Shown here in pieces: positions 3 to 31,789 of a stretch of DNA of 64,000 nt. This DNA comes from Leptolyngbya subtilissima AS-A7. GTDB lineage: Bacteria; Cyanobacteriota; Cyanobacteriia; Phormidesmidales; Phormidesmidaceae. The translations under genes and the position numbers were made by a program. The stretch lies in contig NZ_JAMPKY010000008.1 of the NCBI RefSeq assembly GCF_039962255.1, positions 62,001-126,000 on the forward strand. The letters are read 5' to 3'. The notes beneath the pieces are model-generated. The model saw only the letters and a program-made list of their open reading frames with translations, did no database searches and was not told the DNA's origin. How positions within the stretch are numbered: the first letter of the stretch is position 1; each line of letters opens with the position of its first letter.

Positions 3-1043
3 CAGTCGATTTCTGCTGCTACCGTGACCGAAATTTTAGACAGCAACCAGGTCTACATTCAAAACCGTGCAGCCCAGGTCAACAGTGTGGCCCAGCAGCG
101 CCAGCAGGTCAGAACTAGGGATGCCCGAGCATCGCTGCGGTTCAACACTGGGGCCGTAGCGCGCCTGGCCCACAACTCTAGTTTGGTGGTGGGGCAATGT
201 GCCCAGCTCACCCGAGGCACGCTACTAGTTAACGGCAACCTCAACGGCTGCTCGACCTCAGTCGTCGCTGGAGTGCGAGGCACAATTTATACCATCGAAG
301 TCACCGAGACTGGGGAAACTATTGTTCAGGTGTTCGAGGGGGAAGTGGTGGTAGCGCGCAACCCCGAACCCATTGAACCAATGGCCGACGACTTTGACCC
401 ACGCAACCCATCCCTAGACCCGGCGGTGCCCTCTACCGACCCGGTAGTACCCTTCGTTAATCCTATGGAGCCATCTACGTCTCCGGCTGAGCCATCACCT
501 GTAGGCTCCCCTGACCCTGTCGTTACCCCTGACCCTGTCGTTACCCCTGACCCTGTCGTTACCCCTGACCCCGTCGTCACCCCTGACCCTGTCGTTACCC
601 CTGACCCCGTCGTCATCCCTGAACCAACTACGCCAACAACTACGCCAACTACACCGACCGGCGGGCCATTCACTGGACCGTCTCTTTTCCTCACTGCCCC
701 TAAGCAGAGCAACTCTTCACCGGTCGATAGCGAAGACGCTAAACCAACTGATGAAACCCAGTCAGAAACCGTAGACTTTGCGCCAGCGGATTCGATTACC
801 CTGGCAGAGGGGCAGCAGGTCATCGTGGATGCCGAAGATGACGAGGCGGTGATTACACCCCTAAGCCCAGAGGATTTTATTGACCTTTTAGAAGGTCCGC
901 TGATTGACGGTTTTGCGGTAGAAATACCTGGCATGGCTAACCTGCGCCGCTCCTTTGAGCAACTGTTTCCAGGAATACCATTGCCCTACTATTGGGTGCC
1001 CGCTATTCCCACCCCGCCAATCCGATTTCCCTTTCCGTTCTAG
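3..1043 (+). CDS. FecR domain-containing protein, 5' end outside the window
   Basis: The frame is open from the first bases of the window, so the true start probably lies upstream; the first in-window start candidate is GTG at 24. The first ~110 residues after it match the FecR sensor-domain pattern: a stretch ending RFNTGAVARLA, then LTRGTLLVNG, then VVAGVRGTIY. FecR domains are usually periplasmic, although the signal peptide would lie outside the window. The middle is low-complexity Pro/Thr with six 18-bp units encoding TPDPVV (507-614), and the C-terminus is Pro/Phe-rich. The next gene on the same strand is a CHASE2 adenylate cyclase. From my knowledge of cyanobacterial genomes, FecR and CHASE2-cyclase genes are often adjacent, so a sensory partnership is likely. 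That partnership is inferred, not shown. Confidence 0.8.
   Translation, partial: QSISAATVTEILDSNQVYIQNRAAQVNSVAQQRQQVRTRDARASLRFNTGAVARLAHNSSLVVGQCAQLTRGTLLVNGNLNGCSTSVVAGVRGTIYTIEVTETGETIVQVFEGEVVVARNPEPIEPMADDFDPRNPSLDPAVPSTDPVVPFVNPMEPSTSPAEPSPVGSPDPVVTPDPVVTPDPVVTPDPVVTPDPVVTPDPVVIPEPTTPTTTPTTPTGGPFTGPSLFLTAPKQSNSSPVDSEDAKPTDETQSETVDFAPADSITLAEGQQVIVDAEDDEAVITPLSPEDFIDLLEGPLIDGFAVEIPGMANLRRSFEQLFPGIPLPYYWVPAIPTPPIRFPFPF
507..614 (+). repeat. six 18-bp in-frame tandem repeats in the FecR gene
   Basis: Six consecutive 18-bp units encode (S/T)PDPVV. Some units differ only at the third codon position (cct gtc gtt versus ccc gtc gtc). This is consistent with slippage-driven length variation of a Pro-rich linker. 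Confidence 0.9.
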
Positions 1044-25373: not shown

Positions 25374-28352
25374 TTATTGCCTTTGAACCTGGCGCAACAA
25401 ATCCTGAGTAATGGGGTGGTCAGAGAGGATATGAATTTGCCCAGCGACAATAACAATGCCAACGAAGTCACCTAGGCGGTTGATGGCTTCAATGGTGTAG
25501 GGATGCTCAGCGCCTGAAGTGTGGGCAAAGATCCTAAGCGCCTGCAGAAGCATAGCCTCTACATCAGCGAAGTTATCTTGAGCTACTCTCAACCGCGCCA
25601 GATTGCACAAGCAGATGCCCACAGTAGGATGCTCCTGTCCAAGAACACTTATGCTGATCTGCAACGACTTAGTAGCTAGGGGTTCCGCCTCACCATAGCG
25701 TCCTTGCGACCGATATAGTTCTGCAAGATTGTTCATGCTAATGGCGACATCGGGATGGTCGTCGCCCAAGCGCCGTTGACACAGCATAAGCGCCTTATGG
25801 AAAAGGGATTCGGCCTCTCTGTAGCGCTCTTGCAACCGATATAGATTCGCGAGATTGTTCATGCTGGAAGCGACATTGGGATGGTCGTCGCCCAGGCGCC
25901 ATTGGAGCAGTGTCAGTGCCTTTCGGAAGAGGGGTTCGGCTTCGCTGTAGCGCCCCTGCGACCGATATAGTTCTGCAAGATTGTTCATGCTGGAGGCAAC
26001 ATCGGGATGGTTGTCACCTAAGCGCTGTTGGCGTAGCGTCAGCGCATCGCGGAGGAGGGGTTCGGCCTCGCTGTAGCGCCCTTGCAACTCATATAGACCC
26101 GCGAGATTGTTCATGCTGGTGGCAACATCGGGATGGTCGTCATCCAAAAACCGTTGGCGCAGCATCAGCGCATCGCGGAAGAAAAGTTCGGCCTCACTGT
26201 AGCGCCCTTGAGATTCACACAAATACGCGAGATTGTTCATGCTGGTGGCGACAGTGGGATGGTCGTCGTCCAAGAGTCGTTGGTGCAGCATCAGCGCGTC
26301 GCGGAAGAAGGGTTCAGCCTCGCTGTAGCGCCCTTGAGATTGATATAGAGCCGCAAGATTGTTCATACTGGCGGCGACAGCGAGATGGTCATCGCCAAGA
26401 CGATCGCGCGTTACCATCAAACAATCTTGTAACCAGGGTTCTGCCTGCCCGTAAGCTCCCTGTCCTTGATAAAACCGCCCTAGTCCAATAAATGGCCATC
26501 CTAACGACTCATCGTCTAGCCAATGCTGCCAAGTAGTAGCCGCTTCTGCCAGGTGGGGGATCGCCGCTGTCACTGCCAAGATTTGGTCACGGGTGGGGAT
26601 ATCGGGTATCTGCCGAGCCACTTGCACCGTCGCCTGACAATAGCCCTGCTTTAACGCCTCAGCCCCAGACCACAGCTCCAGCTTGCTGCGAAAAAATTCT
26701 CGAATCAGCTGGTGCAGTTGCAGCTCTACCGGGGCACCACTGGCGCTAGCCACCGTGATCAAACTGCGGTTGATCAACCCCTCATCTCGCCAGTCTTCTA
26801 TCTCATAGGGGTCGGTACCCTCGTACCAGTTCTCTATCCACTCCCAAGGTATAGGGGCCAGGGCAAATAGACAAAGGCGATAGGCGAGTTCTTGGGCTTC
26901 TAGCTCCAGGTCTTGCCAGCTCAGCTCAAAGGCAGCAGCTAGGCTTTCGTGGGCGGCAGTCATGTCTGCCTGGGCCTGAGTTAGGGCTTTGGCATCTAGG
27001 CGCTTGGCATGGAGTTGCTGCTGCATTTTGGCTAGAGTCCACCCCGGCTTGCGGGCCAAAAAACGGCCCACCAGTTCCAAGCCCAGTGGCAGGTAGCCCA
27101 GCCACTCGCACAGGGCTTTGGCGATATCGGGTTCTTGGTCTACGCGTTCATCCCTCACCAACGACCTCAGCAGATCTAGCGATGCCGCCTCACTCAGCAC
27201 ATCGAGCAGCACCATTTGGATGGATGCGCCCAGTTGTAAGCGGGTAGTTAGCAGCACCCGAAAGCGAGATTTCTGCGGCGGCAGGTAGGGTTTAATGGCG
27301 ATGTAAGCAGCATTGTCGTCGGGGCCACTGACGTCATCAATTACTACCAGCACATCGCCATCGCCGGGCCAGTTGCGCCAGCAAAACTGCGCTTGTCGAG
27401 GCAAATCGATATCCGTAGGCATGTTTAGCCCCAGTTGGTCGATTGCATAGTTCACGATTTCGGTGCCAACGTCTTGCTCTTTGGCTTGTAGCCAGCAAAT
27501 GCCACCAGGGTAGATGCCTCGATCGCGCTGTTGCAGGGCGTATCGCAGGGCTAGCTCGGTTTTACCAATGCCCCCCATGCCACGAACAGCGGTAATGGCA
27601 ATGCGATCCGACTGATGGAGCTGGATATGAAGGTTGGTGAGGTCCGTTTCACGACCCACAAACTCTACCGCACCGCTGTGGGGTAGGTTATTGGGGCAAA
27701 CCTTTAGTGGTGAGGGCAGCGTATCGAGATGGTCTAAGAAACGTTGCCACCGTCCATCTTGCTGGTGAAACGCTTGCTGCCAATCGGCTAATACGGGCAA
27801 CCGCTGCATTATTACCGCCGTCTTGACGCCACCACCGCCAAGGCTGCTGTACTCATCTAGCGTAAACTTGGCCATGCCGCAGACCTTTCCGGTTCTGCGG
27901 TTGAGCAGGGCTGCGCCGCTCATCCCCGGCTGCACCTGCCCCTGCTCAAGCATAATGAACGGCGGCTCATCGCCCGTAAAGCCTTCGCACTCTGGCGTTA
28001 CAGGGCGACCATTCTCAAACTCTCTAGCGGGGTAGCCAAACAAATAGAGCTGATCCCCCACCCGTACATCTTCATCATCTAAATAGACACAGGGCAAATT
28101 GTTTTGGGGTGGCTCAATAAAGGTGAGCAATGCCAAGTCAATCTCTGCCCACACCTGCTCTACCTGCGCCTCAGCAAAGTCCTGTATTTGCCGCCAGCGC
28201 ATGGCTATCGGGGCACCCCCCGCCCGACGCACCACATGCTCACAGGTCAGCACCCGGCCCGGTGCCACAAAAAAGCCCGTGCCACATTCACCATTGGCCA
28301 GGGTGAGCTTAACAGTGCAGTCGTGCAGTAGGTCGTAAAGGGTGTCGACCAC
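25374..28352 (-). CDS. trypsin-like protease/NB-ARC ATPase/TPR repeat protein (STAND family)
   Basis: A 992-residue three-part protein. Residues 1-190 are a trypsin-like serine protease with the full triad H39 (LTCEHVV), D72 (EIDLALLTF) and S145 (QPGMSGAALL). Residues ~225-620 form a STAND-type NB-ARC ATPase: P-loop GMGGIGKT (258-265), Walker B DVLVVIDD (333-340), LLTTR (367-371) and a winged-helix/ARC region. Residues 621-956 are eight 42-residue kinesin-light-chain-type TPRs, the middle six nearly identical (MNNLAxLYxSQGRYSEAEPLFRxAL). There is no signal peptide. The gene starts 3 bp after the Trypco1-like gene. The known logic of such proteins is that TPRs sense a ligand, the ATPase oligomerises and the protease is activated. 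A defence or cell-suicide role is therefore likely but inferred. Confidence 0.92.
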   Translation of the reverse strand: MVDTLYDLLHDCTVKLTLANGECGTGFFVAPGRVLTCEHVVRRAGGAPIAMRWRQIQDFAEAQVEQVWAEIDLALLTFIEPPQNNLPCVYLDDEDVRVGDQLYLFGYPAREFENGRPVTPECEGFTGDEPPFIMLEQGQVQPGMSGAALLNRRTGKVCGMAKFTLDEYSSLGGGGVKTAVIMQRLPVLADWQQAFHQQDGRWQRFLDHLDTLPSPLKVCPNNLPHSGAVEFVGRETDLTNLHIQLHQSDRIAITAVRGMGGIGKTELALRYALQQRDRGIYPGGICWLQAKEQDVGTEIVNYAIDQLGLNMPTDIDLPRQAQFCWRNWPGDGDVLVVIDDVSGPDDNAAYIAIKPYLPPQKSRFRVLLTTRLQLGASIQMVLLDVLSEAASLDLLRSLVRDERVDQEPDIAKALCEWLGYLPLGLELVGRFLARKPGWTLAKMQQQLHAKRLDAKALTQAQADMTAAHESLAAAFELSWQDLELEAQELAYRLCLFALAPIPWEWIENWYEGTDPYEIEDWRDEGLINRSLITVASASGAPVELQLHQLIREFFRSKLELWSGAEALKQGYCQATVQVARQIPDIPTRDQILAVTAAIPHLAEAATTWQHWLDDESLGWPFIGLGRFYQGQGAYGQAEPWLQDCLMVTRDRLGDDHLAVAASMNNLAALYQSQGRYSEAEPFFRDALMLHQRLLDDDHPTVATSMNNLAYLCESQGRYSEAELFFRDALMLRQRFLDDDHPDVATSMNNLAGLYELQGRYSEAEPLLRDALTLRQQRLGDNHPDVASSMNNLAELYRSQGRYSEAEPLFRKALTLLQWRLGDDHPNVASSMNNLANLYRLQERYREAESLFHKALMLCQRRLGDDHPDVAISMNNLAELYRSQGRYGEAEPLATKSLQISISVLGQEHPTVGICLCNLARLRVAQDNFADVEAMLLQALRIFAHTSGAEHPYTIEAINRLGDFVGIVIVAGQIHILSDHPITQDLLRQVQRQ
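25485..26492 (-). repeat. eight 126-bp tandem TPR-coding units
   Basis: Eight consecutive 42-codon TPR units; the middle six (about 25611-26366) are highly similar in DNA as well as protein. This suggests recent duplication or gene conversion and easy change in unit number. Confidence 0.85.
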
Positions 28353-28355
28353 GGG

Positions 28356-28670
28356 CTATGCCTTTGGCTCCCATTCAAGGGTGATTTCGAGCGTTGCGTT
28401 GCCGCCGCCTTTAACCAACAACGCCGTTAGCTGGCCCGGCTCTACCGCTATATCTACGCCAAATTTCACCGTTGCCTTTGAGGGCATTGCTTTTTGAATG
28501 GGGGCAGCCACCGCCTCTACAATGCCTTCGATCGCCTTACCCACATCTTTCAAGTTAGGAATTTGCCCCCCAGCTACATCTTGCCGCCCGCCGGTTGCGG
28601 CTACCTCCACTTTTACAATCGTGCCGTCTTCTAGCCTGGCCTGAATAGTGTCTGTGCGATCGGGGGTCAT
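28356..28670 (-). CDS. trypsin-co-occurring (Trypco1/CU044_2847-like) domain protein
   Basis: A 104-residue protein whose layout fits the trypsin-co-occurring domain 1 (CU044_2847) family. It opens with TIQARLEDGTIVKVEV and ends with a strand pair, KFGVDIAVEPGQLTALL and GNATLEITLEWEP, around a helical middle (LKDVGKAIEGIVEAVAAPI). Family proteins are known mainly from gene pairs with trypsin-STAND proteins, and this one lies 3 bp upstream of exactly such a gene on the same strand. Its biochemical job is not established; it may present the protease to its target or hold it inactive. Identification is from memory of the family pattern. Confidence 0.75.
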   Translation of the reverse strand: MTPDRTDTIQARLEDGTIVKVEVAATGGRQDVAGGQIPNLKDVGKAIEGIVEAVAAPIQKAMPSKATVKFGVDIAVEPGQLTALLVKGGGNATLEITLEWEPKA

Positions 28671-28828: not shown

Positions 28829-29017
28829 TCGAGTAATTTTCTCGGAACGTCGAGTAGTTTTCTCCAGATGCCGAGCAATTTTCTCAAAGCACCGAGTTAT
28901 TTTCTTGGCACGCCGAGCGATCTGCTTCATCTTCCGAATAATTTTCTTGGAATGCCGGGTAATTTTCTCGGTGCACTGAGTTATCTACCCCAAACGCCGA
29001 GTAATTTTCTCGGAAGG
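28829..29017. repeat. nine exact-length 21-bp tandem repeats, each a mini-hairpin
   Basis: Nine units of exactly 21 bp run without spacers, consensus ccgagtaattttctcggaacg; units diverge by several bases but none changes length. In the best units ccgag and ctcgg form a 5-bp stem around a T-rich loop. Because 21 is divisible by three, the array is open on the plus strand (TTG at 28817 to 29020, repeating xPSNFLG) and in part on the minus strand. No ribosome site supports translation. The surrounding gap (28671-29123) contains nothing else except the palindrome at 29057. Confidence 0.8.
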
Positions 29018-29123: not shown

Positions 29124-29378
29124 CTACAAAGGCACCCCTTCACTGCCCGCAAAATCGTTGGGAATTTCATCGACCGATTGAACGTTCAAAACAATCATCA
29201 ACGCTTTCCACTGCTGGGGCGTTAACTTGGCCTCAGTTGCCCCGGCAATCCAGCGTTGATAAGTCCGCAGCGGAATCCCACAGTGAACAGCAAACTCAGC
29301 TTGGGACAGATTCGTCCGCTGAATCCTGAGTTCTTCAATAGGGGAATCACTTTCCTGGGGACGCCGATCTTTTTTCAT
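29124..29378 (-). CDS. XRE-type helix-turn-helix transcriptional regulator
   Basis: An 84-residue DNA-binding protein. After a charged tail (MKKDRRPQESDSP), residues ~17-55 form the HTH: IEELRIQRTNLSQAEFAVHCGIPLRTYQRWIAGATEAKLT, the SQAEFA...RTYQRW pattern of lambda-repressor/XRE domains. A short C-terminal helix with LTPQQWKALMIVL follows. Similar short XRE proteins are common in cyanobacteria and often regulate their own gene or a mobile locus. Two 15-bp palindromic sites lie directly upstream (29393-29435), consistent with autoregulation. It may control the neighbouring conflict genes, but no direct link is visible. Confidence 0.85.
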   Translation of the reverse strand: MKKDRRPQESDSPIEELRIQRTNLSQAEFAVHCGIPLRTYQRWIAGATEAKLTPQQWKALMIVLNVQSVDEIPNDFAGSEGVPL

Positions 29379-30007: not shown

Positions 30008-31789
30008 CTAAAACGGCACGGCGGAATCAAGAAAGATTGCATCCTTTCTATGGGGATGAACAAATTGCAGCGATTGGGCGTGCAGGTGCAGCCGCTGCCC
30101 CGGTTCGCTCTGGCCATAGAGGCGATCGCCCCAAATCGGTGCATTCAGCCCATGGGCCGCATGCACCCGCAGCTGGTGAGTGCGCCCCGTCAACGGGTAA
30201 AAGGCGATTCGCGTTAGCTCTCCCTCACGGCCCAGCACCTCAAACTTGGTTTGACTGGGTTTGCCGTGCTGCCAGTTCACCGATTGCCGCGGTCGCTGCA
30301 TCGGGTCACCCCACAGCGGCAGGTCAATGATCCCCGACGCTTCGGCAACATCCCCCACCACGATCGCCTGGTAGGTTTTGGCCACCTGGCGCTGCTCAAA
30401 CTGCTGGCAGAGCTGGCGGTGGGTCTCGGCATCCAGCGCCAGCAGCAGCACCCCAGAGGTGTCTTGGTCAAGCCGATGCACGGGTTGCAAAAACGCTCCG
30501 TCAGGCAGGGCCGATTCGCGAATCGTTCGGGAACCGACTCGGAACGAGTATCCCAAGGGGAATCGCAGGCGGGTGAGCACGCTATCTTGGCGATCGCTGT
30601 AGCGCCCCGGTACCGACAGCAGCCCCGCAGGCTTATCCACCGCAATCATCCACGAGTCTTGATAGAGAACAGGAATCCCCAACTCTAGTTGAATGCCCTC
30701 GATCTGTGAGGGTTGTAGGGGCGCAGCATGCTGCGCCCCTACGGGGATATCGCTTGAGCCCAAAACCTGAGCCGACAACCCCGACAGCAGAAATCCCATA
30801 ATCGGCTGACAGCGCTCAGCGCAGGCCCCATAAAATTCTCCCGGCTGCTTGTCGCCCTGGGGTGGCCCCCACCAAAACTCGGCCATCGCCAGGGGCTCAA
30901 GGCCGAGCTGAGCCGCCGCGTGCAACAGCTTAGGAGCGCAGCAGTCGCCCGTGCCCGTAGGCAGATTGCCCTGCCCCGCTAAATTCTGGATGGCCAGAGA
31001 TTCGCCCGCAAAGTTGGTGAGGGTATAGGCGGCGTGCATCTCGGCCTGGAGCTGGCGGGAGAGATCTCGTCGCCGCTGCCTGAGAATGACGATTTCGGCA
31101 TCGGCAGATTGAATGGTGGCTTCTAGAGGGGCAATGCGATCGCGCCACCGTTGCTTAAACTGCCGCAGCTCGGCCTTGTCGCCCCGACTCTCCTGCTCCA
31201 GAGCTGCTAGGGCTGCCGTGAGGGATTCTCCTGCTAGGGTGCAGACTAGGGTTTGGCGTTGGCGATCGCGGCAATGTTTGCGATCGCGGTGCCTTTGATT
31301 GAACTGGGTGCGATCGCAGGCCTGCTCCTCCTGCAAGCGAGCGTAGGTCTCTCGCTCTGGCAACTGTTGCAACCCCAGCAAACGGTCTTTAATTGCCCCC
31401 AGCGCATCGAGGGTGCGGGCCTCTTGCAGCGCCACCTGCGATCGCCCCGGTATCGGCGGCACCCAGCCAGGCAACCGTTCTTGCCCCTGCCACAGCCCCG
31501 AAAATGCCTTGAGCACTCCCATTTCCCGAGATGGCGATGGCCCTCCCGGACCGGTCTTCGACCATCGCACCACCAGCACCCCAAACATCTTGCCCTCAAG
31601 CGAGTGAGGGTCGCCAAGCTGGGTCATGAGCGCCTGGGCGCTCGCCCGAGCCATTGCCGTGCGGGGCAGTTGGTAATGCTTCCCCGTGCGGGGACAGTAG
31701 CCTTGGTAATAGTAATCAACTGCCTCTAGAGCAGGCAGCCGCACTCCGTCTAAAAAGGCATTGAGGGAATGAAAGGGTAGGTCAGACAC
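30008..31789 (-). CDS. RluA family pseudouridine synthase with long N-terminal extension
   Basis: A 593-residue enzyme predicted to convert uridine to pseudouridine in rRNA or tRNA. The catalytic domain occupies about 375-590: VDKPAGLLSVPGR, the HRLDQDTSG motif with catalytic D441, and GRTHQLRVHAAHGL. The first ~340 residues are an extension with a coiled coil (about 145-255, rich in R, Q, E) and Trp/Pro-rich segments. The extension is a known architecture in some RluA homologues. A 28-bp perfect palindrome (30715-30742) is read in frame within the linker, encoding roughly VGAQHAAPLQ (about residues 350-359). The gene is monocistronic and divergent from treZ. Confidence 0.9.
   Translation of the reverse strand: MSDLPFHSLNAFLDGVRLPALEAVDYYYQGYCPRTGKHYQLPRTAMARASAQALMTQLGDPHSLEGKMFGVLVVRWSKTGPGGPSPSREMGVLKAFSGLWQGQERLPGWVPPIPGRSQVALQEARTLDALGAIKDRLLGLQQLPERETYARLQEEQACDRTQFNQRHRDRKHCRDRQRQTLVCTLAGESLTAALAALEQESRGDKAELRQFKQRWRDRIAPLEATIQSADAEIVILRQRRRDLSRQLQAEMHAAYTLTNFAGESLAIQNLAGQGNLPTGTGDCCAPKLLHAAAQLGLEPLAMAEFWWGPPQGDKQPGEFYGACAERCQPIMGFLLSGLSAQVLGSSDIPVGAQHAAPLQPSQIEGIQLELGIPVLYQDSWMIAVDKPAGLLSVPGRYSDRQDSVLTRLRFPLGYSFRVGSRTIRESALPDGAFLQPVHRLDQDTSGVLLLALDAETHRQLCQQFEQRQVAKTYQAIVVGDVAEASGIIDLPLWGDPMQRPRQSVNWQHGKPSQTKFEVLGREGELTRIAFYPLTGRTHQLRVHAAHGLNAPIWGDRLYGQSEPGQRLHLHAQSLQFVHPHRKDAIFLDSAVPF
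30715..30742. repeat. 28-bp perfect palindrome (GTAGGGGCGCAGCATG...) inside a coding sequence
   Basis: A perfect inverted repeat (14-bp arms), starting GTAGGGGC like the intergenic pair at 24386-24466. It lies in frame in the inter-domain linker of the pseudouridine synthase gene, so the element is translated. Confidence 0.85.

What the first reader, a model, noticed from the sequence alone, without database searches (positions are those of the whole stretch)
25374..28670. Two-gene NTP-dependent conflict system: Trypco1-like protein plus trypsin-NB-ARC-TPR protein
Sequence shows a protease triad (H39, D72, S145), a complete NB-ARC P-loop/Walker B, and eight 42-residue TPRs in one protein, with a small Trypco1-like gene 3 bp upstream. 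Trypsin-STAND/Trypco pairs are described in comparative genomic work on bacterial conflict systems, but few are tested. The near-identical TPR units suggest a quickly changing sensor. Inference: ligand binding by the TPRs causes ATP-driven assembly and activates proteolysis of a cell or phage target.
Basis: partly seen in the sequence, partly recalled or inferred. Interest (0 to 1): 0.75.

Follow-up and report, generated by a model that had tools for sequence, protein, structure and literature searches.

The report
Bacterial immune receptor with protease trigger
A probable cyanobacterium carries, at a chromosome spot where related species keep different defence genes, a sensor protein built to fire a protein-cutting enzyme, paired with a small conserved partner protein whose sister family sits beside caspase-like enzymes.

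Summary
28356-28670(-) is Trypco1 (PF19493). 25374-28352(-) is Trypsin_2, NB-ARC and a TPR array, with the protease triad and NB-ARC motifs intact. 'Near-identical TPRs' is overstated: units 1-5 share 64-81% amino-acid identity; groove positions look diversified.

The kind is known (trypsin + Trypco1, Kaur 2020). Three results go further. (1) Trypco1 follows the protease, not the NB-ARC chassis: among 40 fetched loci it occurs in 16 of 17 with trypsin and 0 of 23 without. In one relative the pair is 95/91% identical but NB-ARC 49%. (2) The locus is a hotspot: sister species hold other NLRs, some with a Bell-like partner, a type IIG restriction enzyme, a NACHT-GUN4 protein, or no NLR. (3) A second Trypco1 branch lies head-to-head with caspase genes in 22 of 80 loci and in 6 of 6 plasmid copies examined.

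Most likely an NLR-type immune receptor: TPRs sense a ligand, NB-ARC assembles, the HtrA-like protease acts on or with Trypco1. Ligand, target and Trypco1's role are inferred.

The parts
28356..28670 (-). Trypco1 gene (104 aa), trypsin-type branch
   Evidence: PF19493 59 bits; NCBIfam CU044_2847 57.9 bits, cut-off 23; tree position
25374..28352 (-). Trypsin - NB-ARC - TPR protein, 992 aa, GTG start 3 bp after the Trypco1 stop
27753..28352 (-). HtrA-like trypsin domain, aa 1-200, triad H39/D72/S145
   Evidence: Trypsin_2 66 bits; triad 54 of 54; fold match to HtrA/DegS
26925..27650 (-). NB-ARC domain, aa 235-476, P-loop at aa 258-265
   Evidence: 57.9 bits; motifs in 28 aligned domains
25500..26381 (-). 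TPR array, 42-aa units at aa 658-951 (six clear, one divergent)
28830..29015 (.). 21-bp imperfect tandem array upstream of Trypco1, with similar sequence upstream of the NLR at related loci
29124..29378 (-). HTH gene that anchors the hotspot
   Evidence: HTH_3 27.9 bits, cut-off 23; found at 10 of 12 informative sister loci, 31-99% identity
24503..24994 (-). Flanking ORF (163 aa), left border of the hotspot
   Evidence: 87-94% identical at 5 of 12 informative sister loci
30008..31789 (-). Pseudouridine synthase gene, right flank of the hotspot
   Evidence: PseudoU_synth_2 107.5 bits; synteny

Best explanation
The large protein is an NLR-type (STAND) immune receptor. Shown by sequence: HtrA-like protease with its triad, NB-ARC switch with its motifs, TPR array with diversified groove positions, and a chromosomal slot that holds other defence genes in sister species. 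Inferred: a ligand (phage or other non-self, possibly a sign of damage) binds the TPR groove; NB-ARC exchanges nucleotide and oligomerises; crowding turns on the protease. Trypco1 is the dedicated partner of the protease module. I think it most likely is what the protease acts on (a protease-processed effector or relay), because the two cases I know of small genes shared between trypsin and caspase systems (gated nucleases, passages read; bacterial gasdermins, recalled) are protease-activated effectors. That last step is only modestly more likely than Trypco1 being a regulatory subunit.
For: Triad and switch motifs intact. Trypco1 tracks the trypsin domain: in 16 of 17 fetched loci with trypsin against 0 of 23 NB-ARC loci without it (Fisher p 2.7e-10). 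Of 80 Trypco1 loci 35 have a trypsin ORF, each time directly downstream on the same strand; in one (L108) it is only a 61-aa fragment. Cassette exchange: against L035 dS is 0.18 for Trypco1, 0.26 for trypsin and 1.1 for NB-ARC, and identity drops near aa 300. Hotspot holding other defence genes. Groove positions: pN 0.27-0.48, above pS in 6 of 8 arrays. Precedent: a trypsin domain fused to Hachiman or Avs proteins cleaves the product of the upstream gene, and a protease fused to a dimerising peptide is toxic (PMC12799240, passages read).
Against: No phage, ligand or cleavage data. AlphaFold did not show how Trypco1 sits on the protease (pTM 0.68; Trypco1 part at block means of pLDDT 40-74) and gave a poor model of Trypco1 alone (pLDDT 60.5). 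No enzymatic or membrane domain was recognised in Trypco1 and no solved relative was significant (best E 0.25). 23 of 80 Trypco1 genes have neither protease within about 4.5 kb by my profiles. Against L037 and L034 Trypco1 changes less than its protease (dN 0.086 and 0.084 against 0.277 and 0.304, at saturated dS), against L035 about equally (0.033 and 0.036); this fits a structural subunit at least as well as a substrate. L067 has trypsin without a detected Trypco1. Two of 8 TPR arrays show groove pN below pS.
Confidence: 0.6

Rival explanations
1. Trypco1 is a bound inhibitor or regulatory subunit (a brake or allosteric switch) that keeps the protease off until the receptor oligomerises. This concerns the role of Trypco1 only and leaves the receptor reading standing.
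For: It lies directly upstream of the protease gene, often with stop and start a few bases apart; it changes less than the protease in two of three comparisons; it appears to be exchanged together with it.
Against: A specific trypsin inhibitor would not be expected to have a sister branch beside unrelated C14 caspases; 8 of 60 rows of the trypsin branch have no trypsin nearby.
Confidence: 0.35
2. Trypco1 is an adaptor that links the protease to other receptors or effectors in trans, as EAD domains are thought to do.
For: 23 of 80 copies have neither protease nearby; partner proteases are varied: of 35 scanned, VMAP-C in 9, EAD9 in 8, NACHT in 5, nSTAND1 in 4, NB-ARC in 2; the PNAS 2024 paper calls Trypco1 an adapter domain (PMC10907252, passages read).
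Against: The Trypco1 ORFs examined are short (92-193 aa in the 80 loci), that is not fused to effector domains; no shared docking motif was sought.
Confidence: 0.2
3. The system serves kin recognition, development or stress-induced death rather than phage defence.
For: A kin-recognition role has been proposed for related conflict systems of multicellular bacteria (PMC10907252, passages read); no phage trigger is known.
Against: The same chromosomal slot holds a type IIG restriction enzyme in a sister species, which points to defence against foreign DNA.
Confidence: 0.2

Closest known systems
Trypsin plus Trypco1 pairs of VMAP ternary systems (Kaur et al. 2020, PMC7159879, passages read)
   Same: Trypsin-like domain with a neighbouring Trypco1 gene
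   Different: No VMAP, vWA or MoxR match in the seven window ORFs scanned (the rest of the window was not scanned); the chassis is NB-ARC-TPR. The passages tie Trypco1 to trypsin, and caspase-bearing VMAPs to an alpha/beta hydrolase; here a Trypco1 branch lies beside caspase genes.
FxSxx-COOH system TPR protein (NCBIfam NF040586)
   Same: The NB-ARC-TPR part matches over aa 230-958 with 277.4 bits
   Different: Below the curated cut-off of 300 bits; the trypsin part is not covered; FxSxx peptides and peptide-processing genes were not searched for.
Nuclease-protease pairs of Avs1, Hachiman and Lamassu (PMC12799240, passages read)
   Same: N-terminal trypsin domain fused to a defence protein, with a partner gene upstream
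   Different: The partner is Trypco1, not a metallo-beta-lactamase-fold nuclease; PADLOC matches to these families are weak and confined to the trypsin part (RT-Protease_XI 43.5, Avs1b 27.9, LmuA 26.9 bits).
CARD-NLR / LypABC (PMC13236601, passages read)
   Same: Trypsin-like peptidase plus NLR with TPR-like repeats
   Different: There the functions are spread over three proteins; here protease, switch and sensor are one protein.
Bell/BASS amyloid NLR pairs (PMC7889193, PMC8086366 and PMC9815663, passages read)
   Same: Small partner gene next to an NLR; look-alikes occupy the same chromosomal slot in two sister species
   Different: The window pair has a protease instead; in neither window protein does the look-alikes' motif occur by eye.

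Membership tests
Trypco1 (PF19493) | Match over the curated cut-off | tested here: met
   59 bits against 24.6
Trypco1 (PF19493) | Neighbour of a trypsin-like peptidase | tested here: met
   3 bp upstream of the trypsin gene
Trypsin-like (S1, HtrA-like) peptidase | His-Asp-Ser triad and fold | tested here: met
   invariant in 54 of 54; HtrA/DegS fold match
Trypsin-like (S1, HtrA-like) peptidase | Peptidase activity | not testable with these tools
   needs biochemistry
STAND NTPase, NB-ARC/AP-ATPase type | P-loop, Walker B, LPL and MHD-like histidine | tested here: met
   K264 and D340 28 of 28, D339 27 of 28, LPL 28 of 28, H547 27 of 28; motif names recalled
STAND NTPase, NB-ARC/AP-ATPase type | Nucleotide-dependent oligomerisation | not testable with these tools
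   needs biochemistry
FxSxx-COOH system TPR protein (NF040586) | Match over the curated cut-off | tested here: not met
   277.4 bits against 300
VMAP-MoxR-vWA ternary system | VMAP, MoxR and vWA genes alongside | tested here: not met
   no such match in the pair and five neighbouring ORFs; genes further away not scanned
Gated nuclease-protease pair (Avs1, HamM) | Upstream MBL-fold nuclease | tested here: not met
   the upstream gene is Trypco1
Known anti-phage system in PADLOC-DB 2.0.0 | Strong match to a system component | tested here: not met
   best matches are TPR 62.5 and RT-Protease_XI 43.5 bits on parts of the protein; none for Trypco1

The most novel reading that the evidence does not exclude
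Trypco1 is a third kind of small effector that bacterial receptors switch on by proteolysis, beside gated nucleases and gasdermins: one branch is coupled to trypsin receptors in operon, the other to caspase-STAND receptors head-to-head, and whole protease-plus-effector cassettes are traded between sensor chassis and, at a fixed hotspot, replaced by other effector classes.
Probability: 0.25. Interest if true: 0.85.

Novelty: new variant of a known kind. Interest (0 to 1): 0.57.

Why it matters
Trypco1 has a name but, as far as the held library shows, no tested function: only two held papers contain the name, a search for its family names found none, and the passages I saw report no experiment on it. 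That it travels with the protease, and that a sister branch lies beside caspase genes, narrows its possible jobs and makes them testable. The locus also suggests that bacterial NLR genes with different effector modules (protease, Bell-like) replace each other at one chromosomal site.

Tried and rejected
Read-through of the TAG between the two in-frame genes as a source of a fused protein: rejected, since among relatives the stop is TAG, TAA or TGA and the gap ranges from -4 to 92 bp.

Docking of Trypco1 on the protease with AlphaFold on a read-through fusion: not resolved. Fold search with the poor Trypco1 model: best E 0.99, not interpretable. Sequence relatives of Trypco1 among solved structures: none significant. 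Relatives of the window Trypco1 in the phage collection: no match at E 1e-3.

Membrane-active helix in Trypco1: the helix is amphipathic (mean moment 0.45-0.48 against 0.22-0.24 shuffled), but so is any helix packed on a sheet; not used as evidence.

Limits of the counts. Order search: 61 matches listed; the 40 fetched regions hold 43 of them, one more is the window itself, 17 were not fetched, and two of those 17 (G050, G030:C474) match the trypsin part. In L066 Trypco1 lies 443 bp after one trypsin gene, before what reads like the start of another. Phylum search: 80 of 91 matches taken; left out were the window's copy, one already held (G061:C24) and nine weak, short or stop-bearing ones. 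The 80 include near copies from related species and are not independent. Trypsin and caspase calls rest on home-made profiles, so divergent proteases may be missed. Tree: quick method, SH-aLRT only; the tool warned of few columns and long branches, among them caspase-type rows; the 16 copies from L034-L073 were labelled 'trypsin' by me. TPR test: the unit pattern fixes many non-groove positions, so only the comparison with pS is fair; the mapping to canonical TPR positions 2, 5, 9, 12 and 13 is recalled; no formal selection test was run. Plasmids: one search lists seven places; six copies were examined, the second place on NZ_AP026079.1 was not.

Papers: besides those cited, passages of PMC8195603 were read; some searches were further literature searches of which I saw listings.
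Full report
Observation. The small gene, 28356-28670 on the minus strand, is Trypco1 (PF19493, 59 bits, cut-off 24.6). The large one, 25374-28352, has Trypsin_2 at aa 24-160 (66 bits), NB-ARC at aa 235-476 (57.9 bits) and TPR_12 in nine stretches. H39, D72 and S145 are kept in the 54 trypsin domains aligned. K264 of the P-loop and D340 of Walker B are kept in 28 of 28 NB-ARC domains aligned, the LPL core in 28 and the MHD-like histidine H547 in 27. A predicted model, best over the protease part, matches MucD, HtrA and DegS structures. The TPR units are not near-identical: units 1-5 share 64-81% amino-acid identity, with dS 0.40-1.08. The NB-ARC-TPR part also comes close to NCBIfam's FxSxx-COOH system TPR protein, 277 bits against a cut-off of 300.

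Sensor. In eight TPR arrays that passed a strict unit pattern, five groove positions per unit show pN 0.27-0.48. This exceeds pS in 6 of 8 arrays (in the window only barely, 0.397 against 0.393) and falls below it in L047 and L052. That fits diversification of a ligand-binding surface; the position mapping is recalled and no formal selection test was run.

Trypco1 belongs to the protease. A search of the 63 genomes of the order with the trypsin plus NB-ARC part found a match in 40. I fetched 40 regions, holding 43 of the 61 matches listed. Seventeen carry the trypsin domain, and 16 of these hold a Trypco1 gene; 23 carry NB-ARC without it, and none holds Trypco1 (Fisher p 2.7e-10). Five of ten non-trypsin N-termini scanned are TIR_2. 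Its Trypco1 is 95% and its trypsin 91% identical to the window's, its NB-ARC 49%. dS is 0.18, 0.26 and 1.1 for the three parts, and identity drops near residue 300, inside NB-ARC. Trypco1 and protease thus seem to have moved together onto another chassis.

A second Trypco1 branch with caspases. Of 291 genomes of the window's phylum (Cyanobacteriota, inferred from named relatives), 49 have Trypco1, 91 matches in all. I took 80 of the 91. In 35 a trypsin ORF follows directly on the same strand, in one of them only a 61-aa fragment. In 22 a caspase-like ORF lies head-to-head, 12-314 bp away; these are the only caspase ORFs that my profile found in the 692 kb examined. In 23 neither was found. All 22 keep the DCC motif and 20 keep GHG by pattern. 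Pfam on four of them: C14 plus nSTAND1 plus WD40 (L149), C14 plus nSTAND1 plus FGE-sulfatase (L153), C14 plus iSTAND (L174); for L145 only the 25 best families of 52 are listed, nSTAND1 and WD40 among them, C14 not. C14 caspases are too few to explain this by chance: 115 of 146 genomes of the class have any, mostly one to nine, at most 16 in the genomes listed. A tree of 97 Trypco1 domains splits, with SH-aLRT support 98, into 37 rows (22 caspase, 15 with neither, no trypsin) and 60 rows (52 trypsin, 8 with neither, no caspase) (quick method, few columns, long branches flagged). A separate set agrees: six copies on five plasmids of Acaryochloris, Gloeothece and Nostoc, found with a caspase-type query, all lie head-to-head with a caspase-like ORF by my profile, two of these ORFs being annotated as pentapeptide-repeat proteins (a seventh place was not examined). 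Three of the five plasmids are typed conjugative. The only two papers found that hold the name Trypco link it to trypsin in the passages I read; Kaur et al. state there that caspase-bearing VMAPs are accompanied by an alpha/beta hydrolase. I read passages, not whole texts or supplements, so I do not claim that the caspase link is unpublished.

A defence hotspot. With the flanking genes as anchors across 26 genomes of the genus, 13 including the window's are informative. The slot between the HTH/pseudouridine synthase side and the GNAT/MBOAT side holds: Trypco1 plus trypsin-NLR in the window and in G021 (anchors on one side only); a 150-aa gene plus NLR in G031 and G045, where the small protein's C-terminus and the NLR's N-terminus share a GG(T/I)AY(I/V)GD motif, the arrangement described for Bell/BASS pairs (the same pair occurs in L036 and L038); NB-ARC proteins without this trypsin in G022, G024 (one side only) and G032 (split over several frames); a partly masked NTPase gene with a sub-cut-off NB-ARC match in G042; a type IIG restriction-modification enzyme in G044 (PADLOC 1248 bits; MmeI domains); an NLR fragment plus a NACHT-GUN4 protein in G035; the HTH gene but no NLR in G043; neither HTH nor NLR in G033 and G025. 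No BASS profile was available, so that label is a resemblance. In the other 13 genomes the synthase was not found (three), stood without the other anchors in the stretch fetched, or lay near a contig end; G040 was not fetched.

Mechanism. The anatomy is that of an NLR: sensor repeats, a nucleotide switch and an N-terminal effector. In Hachiman and Avs1 a fused trypsin domain, after infection is sensed, cleaves the product of the upstream gene (PMC12799240, passages read). By analogy I expect ligand-driven assembly to activate this protease. For Trypco1 the choice is between substrate or effector, regulator, and adaptor. Pairing with both trypsin and caspase receptors resembles what that paper reports for gated nucleases and, from recall, what holds for bacterial gasdermins, and favours the first; slow change and the solitary copies favour the others. 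AlphaFold did not decide.

Verdict. A real, apparently intact system of a known general kind in a less-described architecture, at a defence hotspot, with module exchange and a caspase-linked sister branch of its small partner that I did not expect.

Noticed in passing
window 28830-29015: A 21-bp imperfect tandem array (consensus CGAGTAATTTTCTCGGAACGC) between the HTH gene and Trypco1. Similar sequence lies upstream of the NLR at related loci and at one more place on the same contig. In the nine arrays checked no single frame is open in all; an operator or expression role is possible.
   Followed up: partly
L181 (G000:C5) and L182 (G000:C1): The window's genome has two further Trypco1 genes, both on the caspase side of the tree but with neither protease within about 4.5 kb.
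   Followed up: partly
L186:2378-7791: Plasmid of Allocoleopsis franciscana PCC 7113, typed conjugative: SLOG protein, ATP-binding protein, hypothetical protein, Trypco1 and serine protease in a row.
   Followed up: no
L034:925-971: The reading frame of a close relative of the receptor is interrupted inside NB-ARC (one TAG), so some copies may be decayed.
   Followed up: no
L152, L160, L165, L173: Trypsin-branch Trypco1 genes without trypsin nearby; three (L152, L160, L173) share an upstream neighbour family that reads, in L152, like a SWIM-type zinc finger protein by eye.
   Followed up: no
L123:4794-5720: A Trypco1 with neither protease nearby has an alpha/beta hydrolase 67 bp downstream, of interest because Kaur et al. 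pair such hydrolases with caspases.
   Followed up: no
window 508-622: An 18-bp tandem repeat, 6.4 copies.
   Followed up: no
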